Assembly: GCF_014931565.1 (NCBI RefSeq)
Contig: NZ_CP063353.1
Location: 3,224,001 to 3,288,000 of the forward strand
From: Clostridium sp. 'deep sea'
GTDB lineage: Bacteria; Bacillota; UBA994; PWPR01
Length of the DNA stretch: 64,000 bases
Direction: 5' to 3'
This document shows, in pieces, positions 39,672 to 50,421 of the stretch (the stretch's first letter is position 1; the number at the start of each line of letters is the position of its first letter). A program made the translations under genes and the position numbers. A model generated the notes under the pieces. It was not told the DNA's origin. It searched no databases and saw nothing but the letters and a program-made list of their open reading frames with translations.

Positions 39672-40229
39672 TTACTTACTAAACTCTACTACCGTACAAT
39701 TATCTATAATATAACTAAAAAACTCTTCGTCAGTAATTTCTCTATTAAAGTACCTATTAACAGCTTTACTTACAAAGCCATGAGCAACAATTAATACCTT
39801 TTTTTCTTTATGTTTTTCACTTATTCTATCTAATGCTGCAAATACCCTATCTTGAACCTCTTGAGCAGATTCTCCCTCATGAATGGCTTGGGTAAACGAT
39901 GAATTAAGGCCCTGTTTCCAACGTTCAGGGTATTTAGCTTGGCTTTCTTCTCTTGTAAGTCCTTCATATAAACCAACACATATTTCACGCAAATCACTAT
40001 CGGTTTCAAGGGGTAAATTTAAGTACTTGTTTATAATATTAGCAGTTTGCTGGGCTCTTTTTTGAGATGAAGCTACAATAATATCAATATCTAAATTTTT
40101 TAGAATTTCACCAACTTGTTGTGCTTGCTGTTTTCCAAGTTCACTCAACTCAACATCTAAGCTTCCAGCATATCTTTTTTGAGCGTTATATATAGATTGG
40201 CCATGTCGAACAAAATATAATTTTTTCAT
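39672..40229 (-). CDS. histidine phosphatase family protein (phosphoglycerate mutase-like)
   Basis: 185-residue histidine phosphatase with catalytic RHG (residues 8-10) in YFVRHGQSIYN and the second His in IVAHGFV. The closest known groups are alpha-ribazole phosphatase (CobC) and PhoE/GpmB-like phosphatases. The nearby B12-dependent lysine pathway would make a cobalamin role attractive, but there is no direct evidence. Monocistronic, with AGGTG upstream of its start on the minus strand. Confidence 0.88.
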   Translation of the reverse strand: MKKLYFVRHGQSIYNAQKRYAGSLDVELSELGKQQAQQVGEILKNLDIDIIVASSQKRAQQTANIINKYLNLPLETDSDLREICVGLYEGLTREESQAKYPERWKQGLNSSFTQAIHEGESAQEVQDRVFAALDRISEKHKEKKVLIVAHGFVSKAVNRYFNREITDEEFFSYIIDNCTVVEFSK

Positions 40230-40428
40230 AGTTCACCTCTTATTTATTTTGCTTTAATTCTAACATATTTGCATAAATATATTGAGAGAAATACCTAAAA
40301 TATTAGCTGAAAATTTTAGTTGCTAAAAATCTCTAAAACATTTATTAAATGAAAATTATTATTCATAGAATGATTATATAATATGTGATAAGCTAAACAT
40401 ATAAAATAAAAGAATCGAGGAGGATAAA

Positions 40429-41211
40429 GTGAATAACATTTTTATTCAACCACGTGTAGAAACTTATACAGAGTACTTAAACTTAGCCAACACTAGCGGG
40501 TTGTCATTTGAACTCGGTGACTTTGCATCTCCTGCTGTGTTAAATGATATAACAGAATATAATTACCGAAAAGATTTTTATAAACATCATTTAAAACAAT
40601 TTAGCAGCAATATTAGTTTACATGGAGCCTTTTTTGATATTATTGTTGCCAGTACTGATTTAGCTATTAAAAGAGCTTCGCGTGAAAAGGTTCGTATTGG
40701 TTTAGAAACCGCCAAAGAATTAGGCGCAAGTTCTATTGTTTTTCACTCTGGTTTTAACTCAATTATTAAAAATCCAAAATATAAAGATAATTGGTTACAA
40801 GCTGCTTTGTTTTGGAGCCAAATGGCCAATGAATATGAGCTAGAAATTTTGCTAGAAAATGTTTGGGATTTAAATCCGCAAAATCTTTCAGAATTGTTAA
40901 CGAATATTAATTTAGACAATGTTAATATATGCCTTGATATTGCTCATATAAATGTCTTTTCTCAAGAGACAATTGAAAACTGGTTTAACGTGTTAGGAGA
41001 TAAAATAACCTATATACACTATAGCGATAATAAAAGTGATTATGATGCCCACTTAGCCATTGGCGAAGGAGATATAGACTGGCATATAGTAAACAATTGT
41101 ATAAAAAAACTAAGCCATAAACCCAGAGTTGTTTTGGAAGTAAGTGGTTGTGCAGAGATTAATAAATCATTAAAATATTTAACTAAAAACAAAATATATC
41201 CATATAATTAA
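40429..41211 (+). CDS. sugar phosphate isomerase/epimerase-like TIM-barrel protein
   Basis: 260-residue AP-endonuclease-2/xylose-isomerase-like TIM barrel. Likely metal ligands are seen: His in LHGAF, His in FHSGF, Glu in LLENVWD, Asp and His in LDIAHI, His in YIHYSDN and Glu in GEGDIDW. Members act as isomerases, epimerases or endonucleases, so the substrate is open. GTG start at 40429 after GAGGAGG. It stands alone between the phosphatase gene and the lysine operon leader. Confidence 0.82.
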   Translation: MNNIFIQPRVETYTEYLNLANTSGLSFELGDFASPAVLNDITEYNYRKDFYKHHLKQFSSNISLHGAFFDIIVASTDLAIKRASREKVRIGLETAKELGASSIVFHSGFNSIIKNPKYKDNWLQAALFWSQMANEYELEILLENVWDLNPQNLSELLTNINLDNVNICLDIAHINVFSQETIENWFNVLGDKITYIHYSDNKSDYDAHLAIGEGDIDWHIVNNCIKKLSHKPRVVLEVSGCAEINKSLKYLTKNKIYPYN

Positions 41212-41258: not shown

Positions 41259-41287
41259 TTGCAGGATTCAGGTAAATACTGTAGAAT
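41259..41287 (+). promoter_or_regulatory. promoter of the lysine fermentation operon
   Basis: TTGCAG (41259-41264), 17-bp spacer, TAGAAT (41282-41287). The predicted start near 41294 is about 25 bases before the first aptamer. Confidence 0.78.
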
Positions 41288-41315
41288 TTATAGTAGGTAA
41301 AAACTTAATATTGCG

Positions 41316-41488
41316 TATATAGAGGAGCAGTTTATTAGGTAGTTTAAGAGTGGAAAGGTACGTAATGCCAATATCTTAAATGAAGGTATAAATTGCCGAA
41401 AGGTATTATTTATTACGGAGTAATACACTTGGGAGTTAGGTGCACATAATTTAACTACTGTCATATCCAAATGATATGAGGCGCTATT
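41316..41488 (+). promoter_or_regulatory. lysine riboswitch (L box), copy 1
   Basis: Conserved L-box blocks in order: AGAGGAGC (41321-41328; consensus AGAGGUGC, one change), TTGCCGAA (41393-41400), CTTGGGAGTTA, ACTGTCA (41457-41463), a CATATC/GATATG stem and GGCGCTAT (41480-41487). The basal-stem 3' strand CTAT is also the start of terminator 1. Confidence 0.88.
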
Positions 41489-41516
41489 CAGTAATTTCAG
41501 CTGAATGGTGCTTTTT
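41481..41516 (+). terminator. terminator of lysine riboswitch 1
   Basis: 11-bp stem GCGCTATTCAG / CTGAATGGTGC (two G-U pairs) with loop TAATTTCAG, then TTTTT. Its 5' arm includes the aptamer's basal-stem 3' strand, so folding of the lysine-bound aptamer should prevent it. Confidence 0.88.
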
Positions 41517-41579
41517 GTTTTAAAGTTACAATGGTAGCTTACATAAAAATAAAAACATCGCTAAATAATTTAATAATGT

Positions 41580-41750
41580 ACATAGAGGTGCAATTTTCAT
41601 GGTAGTTAGTAACTGTTAAGAGTAGAAACACTCGTATTACTAATAAAGGGGAAAGTTGCCGAAAGATACCATTAGTTTTCTTAATACTATCTTGGTAGTT
41701 ATGCCTACATAACATAACTACTGTCATATCAAAGTATATGATGCGCTATT
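41580..41750 (+). promoter_or_regulatory. lysine riboswitch (L box), copy 2
   Basis: Very close to the L-box consensus: ATAGAGGTGC (41582-41591), AGTAA, GGGGAAAGTTGCCGAA (41648-41663), CTTGGTAGTTATG pairing with CATAACTACTGTCA (41713-41726), a CATAT/ATATG-type stem and GCGCTAT (41743-41749). It lies 63 bases after terminator 1. Confidence 0.93.
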
Positions 41751-41785
41751 CGGTGTGTATTTTTTCATGCTGAATAGCGTTTTTT
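41744..41785 (+). terminator. terminator of lysine riboswitch 2
   Basis: 14-bp stem CGCTATTCGGTGTG / CATGCTGAATAGCG, loop TATTTTTT, then six Ts. The 5' arm overlaps the aptamer basal stem as in copy 1. Confidence 0.93.
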
Positions 41786-41801
41786 ACTAAACTATGATAT
41801 G

Positions 41802-41845
41802 AAGCGCTATTCAGTGAAATAATACTGAATAGCGCTTGTTTCTTT
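41802..41845 (+). terminator. third, aptamer-less terminator before kdd
   Basis: Perfect 14-bp stem AAGCGCTATTCAGT / ACTGAATAGCGCTT with loop GAAATAAT, then GTTTCTTT. The bases just before it (ACTATGATATGAAGCGCTATTCAG) match the 3' end of the two riboswitches, so it looks like the remnant of a third copy. Confidence 0.82.
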
Positions 41846-41920: not shown

Positions 41921-42955
41921 ATGAAAGCATGCAAATTTGGAACTCATCGAGTATTAGAACCTAAGGGAGTTTTGCCACAACCGGCTTGGAAAATCGATAA
42001 TACTATGGATCTTTATGATAATGAAATATTAATAAATGTAAAGACCCTAAATATTGATTCAGCTAGTTTTACTCAAATAAAACAACAAGCCAATGGCAAC
42101 GAACAAGAAATTGCCAAAATTATGTTAGATACTGTAGCTAAAAGAGGAAAACACCATAACCCAGTAACAGGCTCTGGTGGTATGTTAATTGGTACTGTCG
42201 AGAAGATTGGTAATAAGCTACAGGGTAAAACCGACCTAAAGATTGGAGACAAACTTGCAACATTAGTTTCATTATCTTTAACTCCATTACAAATTACTAA
42301 AATAAAGAAAATAAAAGTAGATACAGATCAAGTAGATATCGAAGGCAAAGCTATTCTTTTTGAGAGTGGAATATATGCCAAATTACCTACCGATATGCCT
42401 GAAAAACTAGCTTTATCAGTATTAGATGTTGCTGGTGCACCTGCTCAGGTTGCTCGATTAGTACAGTCTAATCAAAGCGTATTAGTAGTTGGAGCAGCAG
42501 GCAAATCTGGTTTGTTATGTTTACACGAAGCTAAAAAAAGAGTTGGTATTGCAGGTAAAGTAGTAGCTTTGTGTTATAGCCAAGCTGGTGCTGATGAAGT
42601 AGCTAAACTTAATTTAGCAGATGAAATCATCATTTGTGATGCTACCAATGCAGTAGCTATGATGAATGAAGTTGCTAGAGTTACCAATAACGAAATGATT
42701 GACGTTACTATAAATTGCGTAAATGTACCCAATACAGAAATGGGTTCAATTATGGCGACTAAAGAAGATGGCACAATTTATTTCTTTAGTATGGCTACAT
42801 CTTTTACAGCTGCCGCTTTGGGAGCTGAGGGTGTAGGTAGAGATGTACAAATGATTATTGGAAATGGTTATTGTAAAAACCATGCTGACATTGCTATTCA
42901 AGTATTACGAGAAAATAAAGAGCTACGTAAACTTTACGAAAAGCGTTATGCCTAA
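41921..42955 (+). CDS. kdd: L-erythro-3,5-diaminohexanoate dehydrogenase Kdd
   Basis: NAD(P)-dependent oxidative deamination of 3,5-diaminohexanoate to 5-amino-3-oxohexanoate, step 3 of lysine fermentation. 344 residues, of the usual length. A Rossmann nucleotide-binding loop is visible in VLVVGAAGKSGLLCLHEA. First gene after the riboswitch leader, ATG 41921 after GGAGGGG. It overlaps kamB by one base (TAATG). Confidence 0.93.
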   Translation: MKACKFGTHRVLEPKGVLPQPAWKIDNTMDLYDNEILINVKTLNIDSASFTQIKQQANGNEQEIAKIMLDTVAKRGKHHNPVTGSGGMLIGTVEKIGNKLQGKTDLKIGDKLATLVSLSLTPLQITKIKKIKVDTDQVDIEGKAILFESGIYAKLPTDMPEKLALSVLDVAGAPAQVARLVQSNQSVLVVGAAGKSGLLCLHEAKKRVGIAGKVVALCYSQAGADEVAKLNLADEIIICDATNAVAMMNEVARVTNNEMIDVTINCVNVPNTEMGSIMATKEDGTIYFFSMATSFTAAALGAEGVGRDVQMIIGNGYCKNHADIAIQVLRENKELRKLYEKRYA

Positions 42956-43977
42956 TGAAATTTATTGACCTTTTACCTCGCACAAACAATATAACAATAG
43001 CAATATCAGGGCTTAATAAAAATGCAGGAAAAACGGTAGTTCTTAATAAGTTAATTGACGACGCGGTTGCCATAGGTAAAACACTTGCCATTACCTCAAT
43101 AGGCTATGATGGTGAAAAAACTGACATGTTGGATGGCCACCAAAAACCTCAGATATATGTACCATCAGGTACTATTGTGGCAACCGCATCCTCTTTAATA
43201 GAAAAAACAAATTTAGATTTAGAAATTATAGCAGCTACAGGACAATATACACCGTTAGGTGAGGTGTATATTGTGCGTTATCATCAACACGGTTATTGTG
43301 AAATTGTAGGTCCCTCATCCTTAAACGGGTTAATTAAAGCCAAAGATATCATGTGTAAATACGCAGATATTGTAATTGTGGATGGTGCTTTAAATAGAAT
43401 CTCACAAATGTCACCCAAGCTTTGTGATGCAGCATTTTTTGCTGTTGGTGGTAACGATAATATTGGTAACTTAGTAACAAAAGTCAGAGACCAATTTAAA
43501 CTATTTAATATTCCAAAAGTGTCTCATGACATAAAAAATATAGTTTATGAGTTAATAAAAGAAAATCAATGTGCTTTAATATCACAAAAAAATGTTGTTA
43601 CAAAAATAGAAAATCAAGATGTACTTAATAAGGGTGTTAATAAGAATCACTATGTTTTTTATAATGGGGCAATTACCTTTTCGGTATTAAAAGCGCTTAA
43701 TAGCAAATACAAAGCAATAATTATTCCAGATACAAGCAATGTATTTGTACCACCTAAATTACTTCATAGTTTAACAAATAAGGGTCTTAAACTATATGTA
43801 GGTAATAAAATGCCACTAACGGCAATTACCTTAAATCCTCAAAACACTAAACAAAGTCCCTTAGATATTCTTAAACTGGGTTGTAGAGTAAGTGCTGTAT
43901 GTCCTACCTTACCAGTTGTAGATGTAGTAACATCTCTATATTTTAAAGGAGGTGCGCTTTTTGGAAAATTGGACTAA
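42955..43977 (+). CDS. kamB: KamB, P-loop protein of lysine 5,6-aminomutase operons (putative reactivase subunit)
   Basis: 340 residues. It has an N-terminal P-loop SGLNKNAGKT (about residues 20-28) like small GTPase/ATPase chaperones, and an acidic strand VIVDGALNR. It sits directly between kdd and kamC, as in other lysine-fermenting Clostridia and Fusobacteria. From memory, current family naming links KamB with KamC to reactivation of the B12-dependent 5,6-aminomutase. The assignment rests mainly on position and the P-loop. kamC starts inside its last 17 bases. Confidence 0.78.
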   Translation: MKFIDLLPRTNNITIAISGLNKNAGKTVVLNKLIDDAVAIGKTLAITSIGYDGEKTDMLDGHQKPQIYVPSGTIVATASSLIEKTNLDLEIIAATGQYTPLGEVYIVRYHQHGYCEIVGPSSLNGLIKAKDIMCKYADIVIVDGALNRISQMSPKLCDAAFFAVGGNDNIGNLVTKVRDQFKLFNIPKVSHDIKNIVYELIKENQCALISQKNVVTKIENQDVLNKGVNKNHYVFYNGAITFSVLKALNSKYKAIIIPDTSNVFVPPKLLHSLTNKGLKLYVGNKMPLTAITLNPQNTKQSPLDILKLGCRVSAVCPTLPVVDVVTSLYFKGGALFGKLD

Positions 43978-45574
43978 AAACTTAGTAACCCAAGACTTTA
44001 ATTATGTTTATTCACTTATAAAACCCTTATCGCCATATGGCAAAGAACTGCATAGAAATTTTGAGGTTTTTAAGAGAGGTGAAGAAGCTAAACTTATTAA
44101 ATTCTTAAACAAAGTTAATTTGGTAAGCCAGTTTCTTAAAATAAACACCAAAAATGCTATAGACATAAAAAGATTATTAAAACAGTTAAATAATATAGAT
44201 AATAATCTTGAGCAAATGGAAATTGGTGTAGTTACAGATATAGCACTTTTTAACATAAATAGGTGCTGTAGTACCCTAAATAGAATTACCAAAATAATCA
44301 GTAATAGTTATTTAGCGCAGTTGTTTAAGCTAAATCTTGAATCACTAAATAGTATTATTGAAATACTTAAAGGTGGAAATAAAGTAGATGGTACATTTTA
44401 TTTAGCAGATTCATTTAGCCCACGTTTAGCTGAAGTAAGACATAATTTAAGAAACTGTGAGCGAAGTCTTATAAAAGAAACCCAAAGTAACAACTACTTT
44501 GTGCAAGACCTTTTAGCTAGAACGGTATCATCAACATTTACTATTAGTAAACATGAGGCTGATTTAATTGAAAAACTAAAAAACATAAATGATGTTTATA
44601 TTGTTTCTGAGAATGAATACACCATAAAATACTCTATTCGGGATAACGATACTTTACTAAAGCTTAAAGCTCAAAAACAAGCCATTGAATACACTTTACA
44701 ATCTGAGCTTCTATTTATTAAACAAAAGCTCAGAAAACAAATATGTCCTCACATTCAAGGCTTAAAAGATCTATTAAAATGTATTGGCCAGATTGATGTA
44801 TTTATTGCCAGGGCTGTAGTAGCAAACGAGTTAAAATGTACCTTACCACAATTAGTGAATTACAACGTAATTAAAATTACAAACGGTCGGCATCCTGTTT
44901 TAGAAGAAAAATTAGCAGTTAAAAAAGCCAAATTCACACCCCGATCAATTGAACTAAAAGCAGGTGTTAACCTTATAACAGGAATTAATATGGGCGGTAA
45001 AACTGTTACTTTAAGGTTAGTGCAATTACTTACAACTATGGTTCATGCAGGCATGCCTGTGCCAGTGGATAACATGCAATTAAGTCTGAGGGATTATGTT
45101 CATTTTTCTAAAAGTGATGAAGACTCTATTCTAACTGGCTTGAGTCATTTTGGTCAAGAAATAAACCAAATTAATGAGATATTAACTCATCAAAATGAAT
45201 ATGGTTTAGTGTTAATAGATGAAATTGCCCACGGAACTGCGCCAATAGCGGGGGAGAGTTTAGCAATTGCTGTCTTAGAGAAATTACATGATAGCAATAA
45301 TATTGTAATTGTAACTACCCACTATACCGCAATAGGTGAAAAAATACCGGTATATGAGTGGCAAACAAAGGGTCTAAACTATGAAAAATGGTATAAAAAA
45401 GGCGCTTACAATACTGATGTTAAAGCTTTAAGCAATTGTATTGATTATAGCCTTGTGAGAGTAGATAAAAAACAACAGGAGTTTAGCAAAGCTTTAAAAA
45501 TTGCAGAGTTACTAGGTATGGATAAAGATATACTAAAACGAGCGGAGCAGCTTATTTTAGATAGCAGGAAATAA
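43961..45574 (+). CDS. kamC: KamC, MutS-related ATPase (putative aminomutase reactivase)
   Basis: 537 residues. The C-terminal third is a MutS-type ATPase domain: Walker A GINMGGKT at 341-348, Walker B in VLIDEIAHGTAP, and a switch His in TTHYTAIG. The first 300 residues are helical (MutS core/lever-like), and no mismatch-recognition domain is seen, so DNA repair is unlikely. Its place in kam operons points to a role in maintaining the adenosylcobalamin enzyme KamDE. TTG 43961 is chosen because AAAGGAGG (43945-43952) fits it; the in-frame GTG at 43952 overlaps that site. Confidence 0.8.
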   Translation: MENWTKNLVTQDFNYVYSLIKPLSPYGKELHRNFEVFKRGEEAKLIKFLNKVNLVSQFLKINTKNAIDIKRLLKQLNNIDNNLEQMEIGVVTDIALFNINRCCSTLNRITKIISNSYLAQLFKLNLESLNSIIEILKGGNKVDGTFYLADSFSPRLAEVRHNLRNCERSLIKETQSNNYFVQDLLARTVSSTFTISKHEADLIEKLKNINDVYIVSENEYTIKYSIRDNDTLLKLKAQKQAIEYTLQSELLFIKQKLRKQICPHIQGLKDLLKCIGQIDVFIARAVVANELKCTLPQLVNYNVIKITNGRHPVLEEKLAVKKAKFTPRSIELKAGVNLITGINMGGKTVTLRLVQLLTTMVHAGMPVPVDNMQLSLRDYVHFSKSDEDSILTGLSHFGQEINQINEILTHQNEYGLVLIDEIAHGTAPIAGESLAIAVLEKLHDSNNIVIVTTHYTAIGEKIPVYEWQTKGLNYEKWYKKGAYNTDVKALSNCIDYSLVRVDKKQQEFSKALKIAELLGMDKDILKRAEQLILDSRK

Positions 45575-45599: not shown

Positions 45600-47168
45600 G
45601 TGAATAAATTAAATTTAGACATGAGCTTAGTTGAGAGAGCTCGTAATGCTGCTGAAAAAATTGCAGGTAGCGTTCAAGAAATGGTAGACCAACATACAAC
45701 AATTACTGTAGAAAGAACAGTAGCTCGCCTAATGGGTATAGATGGTATTGATTCTTTTGATGTTCCGCTACCAAATGTGGTAGTAGATCATGTACACCAG
45801 CAGAATAAAATAAGTAGAGGTATTGCTTGGTGGATTGGAAATGCAATGGTTTACTACGGATTAACTCCGCAACAAGTAGCAGAAAAAGTTGCGCTTGGTG
45901 AAATAGATTTAGTCAAAGTGCCACTGCAAGACGAAGCTGAAATCGATCAAGCACTAGATTTAAACACTTGTATGGCTATGCAAAAGATTAAAGAAAATCG
46001 CAATAAGAGAGATGAACTTTGCAAAATATATCCACCAGGAAAAACCCCACAGCAATATGTAATAGTAGCAACCGGAAATATCTATGAAGATATTACTCAG
46101 GCACGTTCTGCGGTACGTCAAGGTGCAGATATTATTGCAGTTATCAGAACAACAGGACAAAGTTTATTAGATTACGTTCCCTATGGTCCAACAACAGAGG
46201 GTTTTGGTGGAACCTACGCAACCCAAGCTAATTTTGCAATTATGCGTGAAGCCCTAGATGAAGTTGGAGCAGAGGTTGGTAGGTATATCCAATTAGTAAA
46301 TTATTGCTCTGGTTTATGTATGCCAGAGATAGCTGTTATGGGGGCTTTTGAGCGTTTAGATATGATGCTTAACGATAGCATGTATGGCATTTTATTCCGT
46401 GATATCAATATGAAAAGAACCTTTGTTGATCAATACTTTTCACGTATGATTAACGCCTATGCTGGGGTAGTTATTAATACAGGTGAAGATAACTATTTAA
46501 CAACTGCTGATGCCTTTGAAGAGGGCCATACTGTTACAGCGTCTCAGTTAATTAATGAACAGTTAGCCTTATTATCGGGTTTACCCCATGAGCAAATGGG
46601 ACTAGGTCATGCCTTTGAAATGAATCCAAACATCGAGAATGGTTTGCTTTACGAAATAGCCCAGGCTCAGCTATCACGTGAACTCTTTCCTAACTGTCCC
46701 TTAAAGTATATGCCTCCCACAAAATATATGACAGGAGACATCTTTAAAGGTCAAGTGCAAGATGCCTTATTTAACCTAGTTTCAGTTTTAACAGGTCAAG
46801 GAATACATTTATTGGGAATGTTAACAGAGGCTATTCATACACCATTTATGCAAGACCGAGCTATAGCTCTGCAGAACTCAAAGTATGTAATGAATACTGC
46901 AAGAGATCTGGGAGATGAAATTAGCTTTAAAGATGGTGGCATTATTCAAACAAGAGCAAAACAGGTTATTTTTGAGGCCTGTGAAATGCTTGAGGATATT
47001 GAGAGTATAGGTATAGAAGAGGCTTTATCTCGTGGTATGTTTGCAAATGTTAAACGCACCCCAGAGGGTGGTAAAGGATTATCTGGTGTTATTAAAAGAG
47101 CTAACAACTATTGTAATCCATTTATAAAGCTACTGCAAGAAGAGTTACAGCTTAAGGGGGAATACTAA
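45600..47168 (+). CDS. kamD: lysine 5,6-aminomutase alpha subunit KamD
   Basis: Large subunit of the PLP- and adenosylcobalamin-dependent aminomutase that moves the amino group of beta-lysine (or D-lysine) between C6 and C5. 522 residues, full length, with the TIM-barrel core. It is paired with kamE one base later. GTG start at 45600 after GGGAGG. No membrane segments. Confidence 0.94.
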   Translation: MNKLNLDMSLVERARNAAEKIAGSVQEMVDQHTTITVERTVARLMGIDGIDSFDVPLPNVVVDHVHQQNKISRGIAWWIGNAMVYYGLTPQQVAEKVALGEIDLVKVPLQDEAEIDQALDLNTCMAMQKIKENRNKRDELCKIYPPGKTPQQYVIVATGNIYEDITQARSAVRQGADIIAVIRTTGQSLLDYVPYGPTTEGFGGTYATQANFAIMREALDEVGAEVGRYIQLVNYCSGLCMPEIAVMGAFERLDMMLNDSMYGILFRDINMKRTFVDQYFSRMINAYAGVVINTGEDNYLTTADAFEEGHTVTASQLINEQLALLSGLPHEQMGLGHAFEMNPNIENGLLYEIAQAQLSRELFPNCPLKYMPPTKYMTGDIFKGQVQDALFNLVSVLTGQGIHLLGMLTEAIHTPFMQDRAIALQNSKYVMNTARDLGDEISFKDGGIIQTRAKQVIFEACEMLEDIESIGIEEALSRGMFANVKRTPEGGKGLSGVIKRANNYCNPFIKLLQEELQLKGEY

Positions 47169-47169
47169 A

Positions 47170-47919
47170 ATGAAACTAGATTTAAGCAAAGTAATGCCCT
47201 ATGGCGATACCTTAAATGATGGAAAAGTTCAACTATCTTTTACCCTGCCTGTACCAGCTGGAGATGAAGGCAAAGAGGCTGCTAAACAAATAGTACAAAA
47301 GATGGGCATGGAAGAAGTTCAGGTTACCCATTATCATGATTTAGGCGAAAACTACAGTTTTTATGTTGTATATGGCTCAGCAAAAGCTACTGTTGATTAT
47401 ACCCAAATTAAAGTACCCAAAGTTAATGTTAAAAAAATGAGCTACTACGAAATCAATAACTTTATTAAAGAACGATTAAACAGAAAAGTAGTAGTAGTAG
47501 GAGCATGTACTGGAACAGATGCGCACACTGTTGGTTTAGATGCCATAATGAATATGAAGGGATATGCCGGGGAGTATGGTTTAGAACGTTACCCCATGAT
47601 GGAAGCCTATAACTTAGGAAGTCAGGTTCAAAACCATGACTTAATTAAAAAAGCCAAAGAAATAGATGCAGATGTAATACTAATATCCCAAGTTGTTACT
47701 CAAAAAGATGTTCATATTCATAACCTAACAGAGTTTATTGAAATGGCACAAGCCGAAGGATTAGATGACTCAACTATCTTAATCATTGGAGGCCCTCGTA
47801 TTTCACATGAATTGGCCGCAGAGCTTGGTTATGATGCAGGATTTGGTCCTGGCTCGTTACCACCTGATGTAGCTGCTTATATTGCAGTTGAACTAGATAA
47901 AAGATTAAATACTTACTAA
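47170..47919 (+). CDS. kamE: lysine 5,6-aminomutase beta subunit KamE
   Basis: B12-binding subunit of 249 residues. The cobalamin motif D-x-H-x-x-G is at D117-A-H119-T-V-G122. Lys130, 11 residues after that His, is the expected PLP-linking lysine, matching the spacing H133/K144 known in the clostridial enzyme. The C-terminal Rossmann domain ends [15 protein letters not shown]. It is encoded immediately after kamD. Confidence 0.95.
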
Positions 47920-47936
47920 AAATGGGGAGGTCAATT

Positions 47937-48323
47937 ATGAAAGATGTAATGATTAGAATGAGAATGAGTTCTCATGATGCCCACTATGCTGGTGATTTAG
48001 TAGATGGAGCCAAAATGCTACAGCTATTTGGTGATGTAGCAACCGAATTACTAATTAGAAATGATGGCGATGAAGGATTATTTGTGGCCTACGATAATGT
48101 TGAGTTTAAAGCCCCTGTTTATGCAGGAGACTATATTGAAGCAACTGGCACAATTACTAAACAAGGAAATAGCTCTAGAAAGATGGAGTTTGTTGCTAAA
48201 AAAGTAATAAGCTCTGCCAATATTGTAGAGCAACCATCAGCCTGTAATGTTTTAAAAGAGCCTATTGTAGTATGTAAAGCAAGTGGAACATGTGTTGTTC
48301 CTAAAGACTTACAAAGGGGTTAA
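47937..48323 (+). CDS. kal: 3-aminobutyryl-CoA ammonia-lyase Kal
   Basis: Removes ammonia from L-3-aminobutyryl-CoA to give crotonyl-CoA. 128 residues, hot-dog fold, matching the known small enzyme. ATG 47937 is preceded by GGGGAGG (47924-47930); an in-frame ATG at 47922 is directly before that site and would be poorly translated. Between kamE and kce, as in other kam operons. Confidence 0.9.
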
Positions 48324-48329
48324 ATTACA

Positions 48330-49151
48330 ATGGAGAAACTAATTATAACTGCTGCTATTTGTGGGGCAGAAGCCTATAAAAAAGACAATGCAAACATGCC
48401 TTTATCACCACTAGAGTTAGCAGATGCTGCTTATGGATGTTATAAAGCAGGTGCCTCAATAATTCATTTACATGTACGTGATGAAAATGGTGAACCAACT
48501 CAAAGTAAAGAAATATTTGCAGAAACAATAAAACTAATAAAAGAAAAATGTCCAGATATAATTGTTCAGCCATCAACCGGAGGAGCCGTAGGCATGACTG
48601 CAAAAGAGCGTATGCAGCCCCTTGAGTTAGATGTAGAAATGGCAACATTAACTGGAGGAACAGTTAACTTTGGAGATGGAGTTTTTTATAACTCCCCTCA
48701 GTATATAGAACAATTTGCTACTGTCATGAAAGAGCGAGCTATTAAGCCTGAAATAGAGGTCTTTGAAGTAGGTATGATTCAAAACGCTTTACGTTTAGTA
48801 AAAAAAGGGTTGCTAAAAATGCCACTTCATTTTGATTTTGTAATGGGTGTACCTGGTGCTATTCCAGGTACAGCTAAAAACCTGCTGCACTTAGTAGAGT
48901 CAATTCCTAAAGATTGCACATGGACTGTGGCTGGAATAGGTAGAGCAGAGCTTCCTTTAGCTACTATGGCTATTGTTTTAGGTGGAAATGTAAGGGTTGG
49001 ATTTGAAGACAACTTATACTACAGATATAAACAACTTGCTACCAGTAATGCTGAACTAGTAGAGAGAATTGTGCGGATAGCTAATGAATTAGATAGAGAG
49101 ATAGCTACACCTAAAGAAGCACGAAAAATTTTGGGCATAACACACAACTAA
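48330..49151 (+). CDS. kce: 3-keto-5-aminohexanoate cleavage enzyme Kce
   Basis: BKACE (DUF849) enzyme of 273 residues. It joins 5-amino-3-oxohexanoate with acetyl-CoA and releases acetoacetate and 3-aminobutyryl-CoA. The Zn-binding H-x-H is in IIHLHVRD, and the barrel ends GNVRVGFEDNLY are typical. Six bases after kal. Confidence 0.95.
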   Translation: MEKLIITAAICGAEAYKKDNANMPLSPLELADAAYGCYKAGASIIHLHVRDENGEPTQSKEIFAETIKLIKEKCPDIIVQPSTGGAVGMTAKERMQPLELDVEMATLTGGTVNFGDGVFYNSPQYIEQFATVMKERAIKPEIEVFEVGMIQNALRLVKKGLLKMPLHFDFVMGVPGAIPGTAKNLLHLVESIPKDCTWTVAGIGRAELPLATMAIVLGGNVRVGFEDNLYYRYKQLATSNAELVERIVRIANELDREIATPKEARKILGITHN

Positions 49152-49176: not shown

Positions 49177-50421
49177 ATGCGTGATTACAAAAATATAGAA
49201 CTTTTTAAAAATGTTACAGCCGAAGAGTGGAATGATTGGCAGTGGCAGGTTCGTAACAGAATTACGGACATAGATACTTTAAAGCAAATAATTAACCTAT
49301 CAGATAACGAAATTAAAGGTATAAAACAGTGTTTAAAAACACTACGAATGGCTATAACACCCTATTATGCAACACTTATGGATCCCGAAAATGTAAAATG
49401 CCCAGTACGCATGCAGGCTGTTCCTACAGCTAAAGAACTTAATATTAGTGACCATGATATGTTGGATCCGTTACATGAAGATGCAGACTCCCCAGCTCCA
49501 GGATTAACCCATCGTTATCCGGACCGAGTTTTATTTTTAATAACAGATCAGTGCTCTATGTACTGTAGGCACTGTACCCGTAGAAGGTATGCTGGTGGAT
49601 TAGATAAAGCTCGTCCTAAAAAAGATTTACAAAAGGCTTTTAATTATATTCGCTCAAATACAAAGGTACGTGATGTACTATTATCTGGTGGAGATGCCTT
49701 ATTAGTTAGTGATGATTATTTAGAGTACATTATTAGTGAGTTAAGAAGCATTCCTCACGTTGAAATCATTAGAATTGGTACAAGAGCGCCAGTAGTGTTG
49801 CCTCAAAGAATAACACCAGACTTAGTTAATATGCTAAAAAAGTATCACCCTGTGTGGTTAAATACCCACTTTAATCATCCAACAGAAATAACCAAACCAG
49901 CGGCAGAGGCCTTAGCATTATTAGCTAATGCTGGTATTCCACTTGGTAATCAATCTGTATTACTTAGGGGCATAAATGATTGCCCATATATCATGAAAGA
50001 ACTAGTTCATTTACTTGTTAAAAATAGAGTTCGTCCATACTATATTTATCAGTGTGATTTGTCTGCTGGCATAAGCCATTTTCGTACCTCGGTAGATAAA
50101 GGCATTGAAATAATCGAAATGTTACGAGGACATACTTCAGGTTACGCTGTACCTGTATTTGTAGTAGATGCTCCAGGTGGTGGTGGCAAGATTCCTGTAG
50201 GACCACAATATTTAATATCACGCGTAGGAAATAAAGTAATTTTACGTAACTATGAAGGAGTAATTAGTGCCTATAGCCAACCAACAGATTATGTGAATCC
50301 ATGTACATCATGTGATCATAAACAGCACTTTAATGAGTCTAGAATAGGTATTCAAAAGCTCTTTGAAGATGAAGCATTGAGCCTAGAGCCATCAAATCTT
50401 GAACGACATAAACGACACTAA
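49177..50421 (+). CDS. kamA: L-lysine 2,3-aminomutase KamA
   Basis: Radical-SAM, PLP-dependent enzyme that converts L-lysine to L-beta-lysine, the first step. 414 residues. The 4Fe-4S motif C126-x3-C130-x2-C133 is in CSMYCRHC. The PLP/zinc-binding C-terminal region includes [17 protein letters not shown] and a late CTSCDHK cysteine pair. ATG 49177 follows TAGGAGG. Placing kamA after the mutase and cleavage genes is a variation of the usual cluster order. Confidence 0.95.

What the first reader, a model, noticed from the sequence alone, without database searches (positions are those of the whole stretch)
41259..41785. Tandem lysine riboswitches wired as lysine-ON switches ahead of a lysine-degradation operon
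Seen: two L-box aptamers in series, each with its own terminator, behind one promoter and ahead of kdd-kamBCDE-kal-kce-kamA. In both, the 3' strand of the aptamer basal stem (GCGCTAT) is the 5' arm of the terminator with no separate antiterminator. A lysine-bound aptamer should therefore block termination and turn on catabolism, opposite to the usual lysC-type OFF switch. Known: lysine elements near kam genes have been proposed before, from memory. Inference: two in series should give a steeper response or a lower leak. Copy 1 has one change in the AGAGGUGC block, so the two may differ in affinity.
Basis: partly seen in the sequence, partly recalled or inferred. Interest (0 to 1): 0.82.

Follow-up and report, generated by a model that had tools for sequence, protein, structure and literature searches.

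The report
Tandem lysine-ON riboswitches before lysine-fermentation operon
Upstream of the genes this bacterium uses to ferment lysine lie two RNA lysine sensors, each built to stop transcription unless lysine is present, followed by a third stop signal that has lost its own sensor; ON-type lysine sensors before such genes are already known, so this is an unusual variant rather than a new kind of system.

Summary
Two full-length lysine aptamers (RF00168; 41312-41494, 41575-41756) precede kdd-kamBCDE-kal-kce-kamA. In each, the P1 3' strand lies inside the 5' arm of a strong terminator, leaving no room for an antiterminator; without ligand the terminator wins. Among 95 lysine riboswitches surveyed, this ON anatomy occurs in all 8 aptamers at lysine-fermentation loci (6 genomes) and none of 87 elsewhere, including this genome's own permease riboswitch. 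Lysine-ON control of catabolism is well supported but was not measured. It is not new: ON lysine riboswitches before kal/kce, and double lysine riboswitches, are published. Folding suggests it may still obey lysine: with aptamer 2 bound, a released terminator 3' arm captures its 5' arm before its own 3' arm emerges. That relay is a computed hypothesis (about one in three). Verdict: a new variant of a known kind.

The parts
41259..41287 (+). possible promoter, TTGCAG-17-TAGAAT
   Evidence: read by eye only; promoter-like matches in the region are at chance level; position not supported by a clear counterpart in G001
41312..41494 (+). lysine aptamer A1; P1 41319-41322 with 41484-41487; L2-L3 loop complementarity CGUAAU 41361-41366 with AUUACG 41412-41417
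   Evidence: RF00168, 78.7 bits, full length; pairs; loop complementarity reached in 38 of 2000 shuffles
41479..41514 (+). terminator T1, 5' arm overlaps A1 P1 3' strand; U-tract follows
41575..41756 (+). lysine aptamer A2; P1 41582-41585 with 41746-41749
   Evidence: RF00168, 87.5 bits, full length; pairs
41743..41780 (+). terminator T2, 5' arm overlaps A2 P1 3' strand; 3' arm 41765-41779
41795..41801 (+). remnant of an aptamer 3' end (P5 3' strand TGATATGA, running into the P1 3' strand inside T3)
   Evidence: 40-nt exact block 41795-41834 shared with the end of G001 aptamer 2 plus its terminator; alignment
41802..41837 (+). third terminator-like hairpin T3, without an aptamer of its own
   Evidence: conserved block; folding of its capture by the T2 3' arm 41770-41779
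41921..42955 (+). kdd, L-erythro-3,5-diaminohexanoate dehydrogenase
   Evidence: NF052381, 284 bits, cut-off 200
42955..43977 (+). kamB, lysine 5,6-aminomutase reactivase subunit
   Evidence: NF052386 above cut-off
43952..45574 (+). kamC, lysine 5,6-aminomutase reactivase ATPase
   Evidence: NF052383 above cut-off
45600..47168 (+). kamD, lysine 5,6-aminomutase alpha
   Evidence: NF052384 above cut-off
47170..47919 (+). kamE, lysine 5,6-aminomutase beta
   Evidence: NF052385 above cut-off
47922..48323 (+). kal, 3-aminobutyryl-CoA ammonia lyase
   Evidence: NF052388 above cut-off
48330..49151 (+). kce, 3-keto-5-aminohexanoate cleavage enzyme
   Evidence: NF052387 above cut-off
49177..50421 (+). 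kamA, lysine 2,3-aminomutase
   Evidence: TIGR03820 above cut-off

Best explanation
The leader is a serial lysine-ON attenuator. In low lysine, each aptamer's weak 4-bp P1 gives way to the terminator; T1 and then T2 form and transcription stops before the lysine-fermentation genes. When lysine binds an aptamer during transcription, P1 is locked, the 5' arm of the terminator is sequestered and polymerase reads on. Both gates must be passed, so the operon is induced when lysine is plentiful. A third hairpin, T3, left over from a unit that lost its aptamer, stands between the switches and kdd. Shown: the aptamers, the terminators, the overlap, the operon, the mutual exclusion in folding, and the association of this anatomy with lysine-fermentation genes. 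Inferred: lysine binding, direction and steepness of the response, promoter, and what T3 does.
For: Two full-length RF00168 hits. P1 3' strand inside the terminator 5' arm in both units. Without ligand the P1 3' strand is in the terminator with P 1.00 once the stem is out; holding the aptamer fold costs 1-5 kcal/mol before the terminator 3' arm is made and 12-14 after, as expected of a kinetic switch. ON anatomy in 8/8 aptamers of lysine-fermentation loci in 6 genomes and 0/87 elsewhere. P1 and terminator sequences change together between families. The genome's permease riboswitch has its terminator 48 nt downstream of P1, the OFF layout. Published statements that lysine riboswitches activate catabolic genes (PMC5584792) and that some lysine riboswitches have ON logic (PMC2258182).
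Against: No measurement of lysine binding or termination. P1 is only 4 bp in both copies, shorter than in G320 and G445. Bit scores are lower than for most biosynthetic lysine riboswitches. If T3 terminates constitutively it would reduce expression even with lysine.
Confidence: 0.86

Rival explanations
1. Extension of the main explanation: T3 is a third gate slaved to the same aptamers. With A2 bound, the T2 3' arm is free (and with A1 bound the T1 3' arm is free) and pairs with the T3 5' arm, preventing T3. With the aptamers empty, T2 is intact and any polymerase that leaked past T2 meets T3.
For: With A2 held in the bound fold, T2 3' arm pairs with T3 5' arm at P 0.96-0.99 for RNA ends 41816-41833; unbound, T2 stays formed and T3 forms; the anti-T3 hairpin is -20.6 against -21.3 for T3, and the barrier out of the simple anti-T3 helix is about 7.5 kcal/mol. 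The released T1 3' arm can do the same in the full leader. Shuffled segments never reach capture of 0.9 (0 of 100). T3 is held unchanged over 40 nt against G001.
Against: At full T3 length the equilibrium goes to T3 (P 0.84 with A2 bound). The complementarity follows automatically from repeated units, so it need not be selected. Found in one genome only. In the full leader the free ensemble also predicts T1 arm capture of T3 without ligand, which would blur the control.
Confidence: 0.33
2. T3 is a constant attenuator: it terminates a fixed fraction of transcripts that pass T2, or is simply a stable 5' hairpin of the mRNA, with no link to lysine.
For: Perfect stem, -21.3 kcal/mol, with a mediocre U-tract; terminator score 1.9 to 20 depending on where the stem is taken to end, against 29 and 27 for T1 and T2 cores.
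Against: The released 3' arms of T1 and T2 are complementary to its 5' arm and are made earlier.
Confidence: 0.45
3. A2 can close in two ways, with its own 3' half (blocking T2) or with the remnant 3' half before T3 (blocking T3 around an intact T2 hairpin), so one aptamer gates two terminators in turn.
For: Remnant GATATGA pairs perfectly with the A2 P5 5' strand; the two states are near equal in energy, -74.3 and -73.0.
Against: Needs a long loop containing T2, and only polymerases that already passed an intact T2 could use it.
Confidence: 0.1
4. The riboswitches are ordinary lysine-OFF switches.
For: Most lysine riboswitches in the survey have the OFF layout.
Against: No separate antiterminator fits: P1 and terminator overlap, and the terminator forms without ligand. 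The logic would be perverse for a degradation operon.
Confidence: 0.04

Closest known systems
Lysine riboswitches before lysine catabolic genes: Clostridium sticklandii kal-kce, Fusobacterium nucleatum kal, Thermoanaerobacter pspF3-kal-kce (PMC5584792)
   Same: Same aptamer family, same pathway, said there to be positively regulated by lysine; G320 found here has the same kind of order, riboswitch, sigma54-type activator, permease, kal, kce.
   Different: Those are described as one riboswitch; here two units in series precede kdd and the whole kam operon, with a third terminator that has no aptamer.
Tandem pseudo-cooperative lysine riboswitches, 14 doublets listed in PMC9481103
   Same: Two complete lysine riboswitches in series, each with its own terminator.
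   Different: That text does not give their genes or logic; here both are ON type, and an extra sensor-less terminator follows.
B. subtilis pbuE adenine riboswitch (PMC7707468)
   Same: Works alike: ligand-locked P1 resists invasion by a terminator that shares its strand.
   Different: Different aptamer, ligand and gene; single copy. An analogy of mechanism, not kinship.
lysC-type lysine-OFF riboswitch
   Same: Same aptamer family; this genome has one of OFF layout before an APC permease.
   Different: OFF switches have a spacer that can form an antiterminator and a terminator downstream of P1; absent in the two units here.

Membership tests
Lysine riboswitch (RF00168) | match to the covariance model over its whole length above the gathering score | tested here: met
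   78.7 and 87.5 bits against 30, model positions 1-182
Lysine riboswitch (RF00168) | conserved junction blocks AGAGGnGC, GCCGAA, ACUGUCA, GCGCUA | tested here: met
   present in both copies
Lysine riboswitch (RF00168) | L2-L3 loop-loop pairing | tested here: inconclusive
   A1 6 bp, 38 of 2000 shuffles as good; A2 5 bp, 285 of 2000
Lysine riboswitch (RF00168) | binds lysine selectively | not testable with these tools
   needs in-line probing or calorimetry
ON-type transcriptional riboswitch | P1 3' strand is part of the terminator 5' arm, no separate antiterminator | tested here: met
   both copies
ON-type transcriptional riboswitch | ligand lowers termination | not testable with these tools
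   needs single-round transcription
OFF-type (lysC-like) lysine riboswitch | antiterminator region between aptamer and a terminator lying downstream of P1 | tested here: not met
   terminator begins at or before the P1 3' strand
Tandem pseudo-cooperative riboswitch | two complete aptamers of one class, each with its own expression platform, no gene between | tested here: met
Tandem pseudo-cooperative riboswitch | steeper dose response than one unit | not testable with these tools
   needs reporter or transcription assays

The most novel reading that the evidence does not exclude
The leader is a three-gate relay run by two aptamers: bound aptamers free terminator 3' arms, which then act as antiterminators for the next, sensor-less terminator, so that an orphan terminator left behind by loss of its aptamer stays under lysine control.
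Probability: 0.33. Interest if true: 0.66.

Novelty: new variant of a known kind. Interest (0 to 1): 0.5.

Why it matters
It gives a natural contrast within one genome of the same sensor laid out as OFF before a permease and as ON, twice, before lysine fermentation, and a survey-level rule that the expression platform follows the role of the gene. The sensor-less third terminator makes it testable how riboswitch arrays gain and lose units without losing control, and whether a strand released by one switch can run the next terminator. The array is also a candidate lysine-inducible control element.

Tried and rejected
Affinity difference from AGAGGAGC in copy 1: rejected, a common variant. OFF logic: rejected on anatomy. 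Tandem riboswitches as a general feature of kam operons: rejected; in this survey lysine riboswitches lie in the lysine-fermentation loci of six genomes only, and only this genus has two. Weak P1-overlapping hairpins of -7.6 to -9.9 kcal/mol in L012, L015, L132 and L157 were not counted as ON terminators, since each has a stronger hairpin downstream. The first gene contexts were wrong for minus-strand loci because whole-genome loci are not oriented; redone. Rodionov et al. 2003, the likely first report of ON lysine elements, is not held, so it is known here only through papers that cite it. A search for one aptamer with tandem terminators found no paper, which is weak evidence of absence.

Full report
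Observation. The window is 3224001-3288000 of a single-contig 3.83 Mb genome. cmscan with Rfam 15 gives two complete lysine aptamers, A1 41312-41494 and A2 41575-41756, and no other RNA family at gathering score. A pattern scan finds three strong terminator-like hairpins after them, T1, T2 and T3, and one weak one; 0.6 are expected in shuffles. The genes that follow are kdd, kamB, kamC, kamD, kamE, kal, kce and kamA, each above its NCBIfam cut-off.

Anatomy. In both units the P1 3' strand (CTAT in GCGCTATTC) is inside the 5' arm of the terminator, so P1 and the terminator cannot coexist. P1 has 4 standard pairs in each copy. Partition-function folding puts the P1 3' strand in the terminator with probability 1.00 once the stem is out. 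Holding the aptamer fold then costs 12-14 kcal/mol, but only 1-5 kcal/mol when the P1 3' strand has just been made. This is what a kinetic ON switch of the pbuE type looks like, in which ligand-locked P1 resists strand invasion (PMC7707468). No separate antiterminator fits.

Survey. Lysine riboswitches were collected from 61 genomes of the relatives set, from the genomes behind 60 loci that encode a Kdd relative, and from 65 genomes with matches to lysine 5,6-aminomutase; 95 distinct ones were examined. A strong terminator whose 5' arm takes up the P1 3' strand is present in all 8 aptamers in lysine-fermentation loci (this window 2, G001 2, G043, G144, G320, G445) and in none of the other 87, most of which precede dapB, lysA, nhaC-like, permease, asd, lysC or dapA genes. 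Fisher P is 1.3e-9 counted by locus; the genomes are related and the 95 are not independent, so this is a guide only. P1 sequences differ between families (CTAT, CTTTAA, CTGG, CTATTTATG) and the terminator 3' arm changes with them. The third lysine riboswitch of this genome, before an APC permease, has its terminator 48 nt downstream of P1. The organism thus appears to repress uptake and induce fermentation with the same kind of sensor.

The third hairpin. T3 (41802-41837) follows the 3' end of an aptamer (P5 3' and P1 3' strands) that has no body. Positions 41795-41834 are identical over 40 nt to the end of aptamer 2 and its terminator in same-genus G001, where the same sequence is the regulated terminator; other exact matches between the two leaders, apart from this repeat, are at most 14 nt, and kdd is 73.6% identical in nucleotides. 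A1, A2 and G001 A1 are 70-75% identical to one another and 68-69% to G001 A2. The simplest history is that the first unit was duplicated in this lineage and the old second aptamer was lost, leaving its terminator; the margins are small and gene conversion is not excluded.

Does T3 spoil the ON logic? Its terminator score is 1.9 to 20 depending on where the stem is taken to end, against 29 and 27 for T1 and T2 cores and 10 for the G001 counterpart. If constitutive, it would lower expression even with lysine. Folding offers another outcome. With A2 held in its bound fold, the released T2 3' arm (41770-41779) pairs with the T3 5' arm (41805-41814) at P 0.96-0.99 for RNA ends 41816 to 41833; unbound, T2 stays intact and T3 forms. 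The anti-T3 hairpin (-20.6 kcal/mol) nearly equals T3 (-21.3) and can form first. Shuffled segments never reach a capture of 0.9 (0 of 100). In the full leader the released T1 3' arm can do the same. Against this: at full T3 length equilibrium favours T3 (P 0.84), the complementarity follows automatically from repeated units, and the full-leader model shows some capture even without ligand. I give the relay about one in three, a constant attenuator or stabilising hairpin somewhat more.

Literature. PMC5584792 states that lysine riboswitches before kal/kce genes in C. sticklandii, F. nucleatum and Thermoanaerobacter positively regulate catabolism. PMC2258182 notes lysine riboswitches with ON logic that bury pieces of terminator stems. 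PMC9481103 lists 14 double lysine riboswitches with terminators. Each ingredient is therefore known. I found no report of a tandem ON array before a kdd-kam operon or of a sensor-less third terminator, but the library lacks most subscription journals.

Limits. No binding or transcription was measured. The promoter is not established. Folding used ViennaRNA equilibrium energies with imposed aptamer pairs and ignores tertiary contacts, pausing and the polymerase footprint. Most relatives are metagenome assemblies.

Noticed in passing
window 39672-41211: A CobC-like phosphatase gene (minus strand) and a gene weakly matching the cobamide-remodelling enzyme CbiR (43.5 bits, cut-off 105) sit directly upstream of the leader; a similar CbiR-like gene precedes the leader in G001. 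This may link cobamide handling to the B12-dependent lysine 5,6-aminomutase.
   Followed up: no
L001 1501-1678 (G000:C1:1160209-1160386): A third lysine riboswitch of this genome, OFF layout, before an APC-family permease.
   Followed up: partly
L119 and L113 (G108:C38:140190-140596): Tandem lysine riboswitches before a lysC-like aspartokinase gene in a Halothermothrix-related assembly, both with OFF-type spacing.
   Followed up: partly
L139 1501-1676 and L146 6368-6542 (minus): In G043 and G144 a single ON-type lysine riboswitch lies inside the lysine-fermentation gene cluster, between a kamC-like gene and kal.
   Followed up: partly
L148 (minus strand) and L142 (minus strand): Two lysine riboswitch hits above the gathering score lack the usual GCCGAA block; L148 reads TTTCCGAA there. 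Possible aptamer variants.
   Followed up: no
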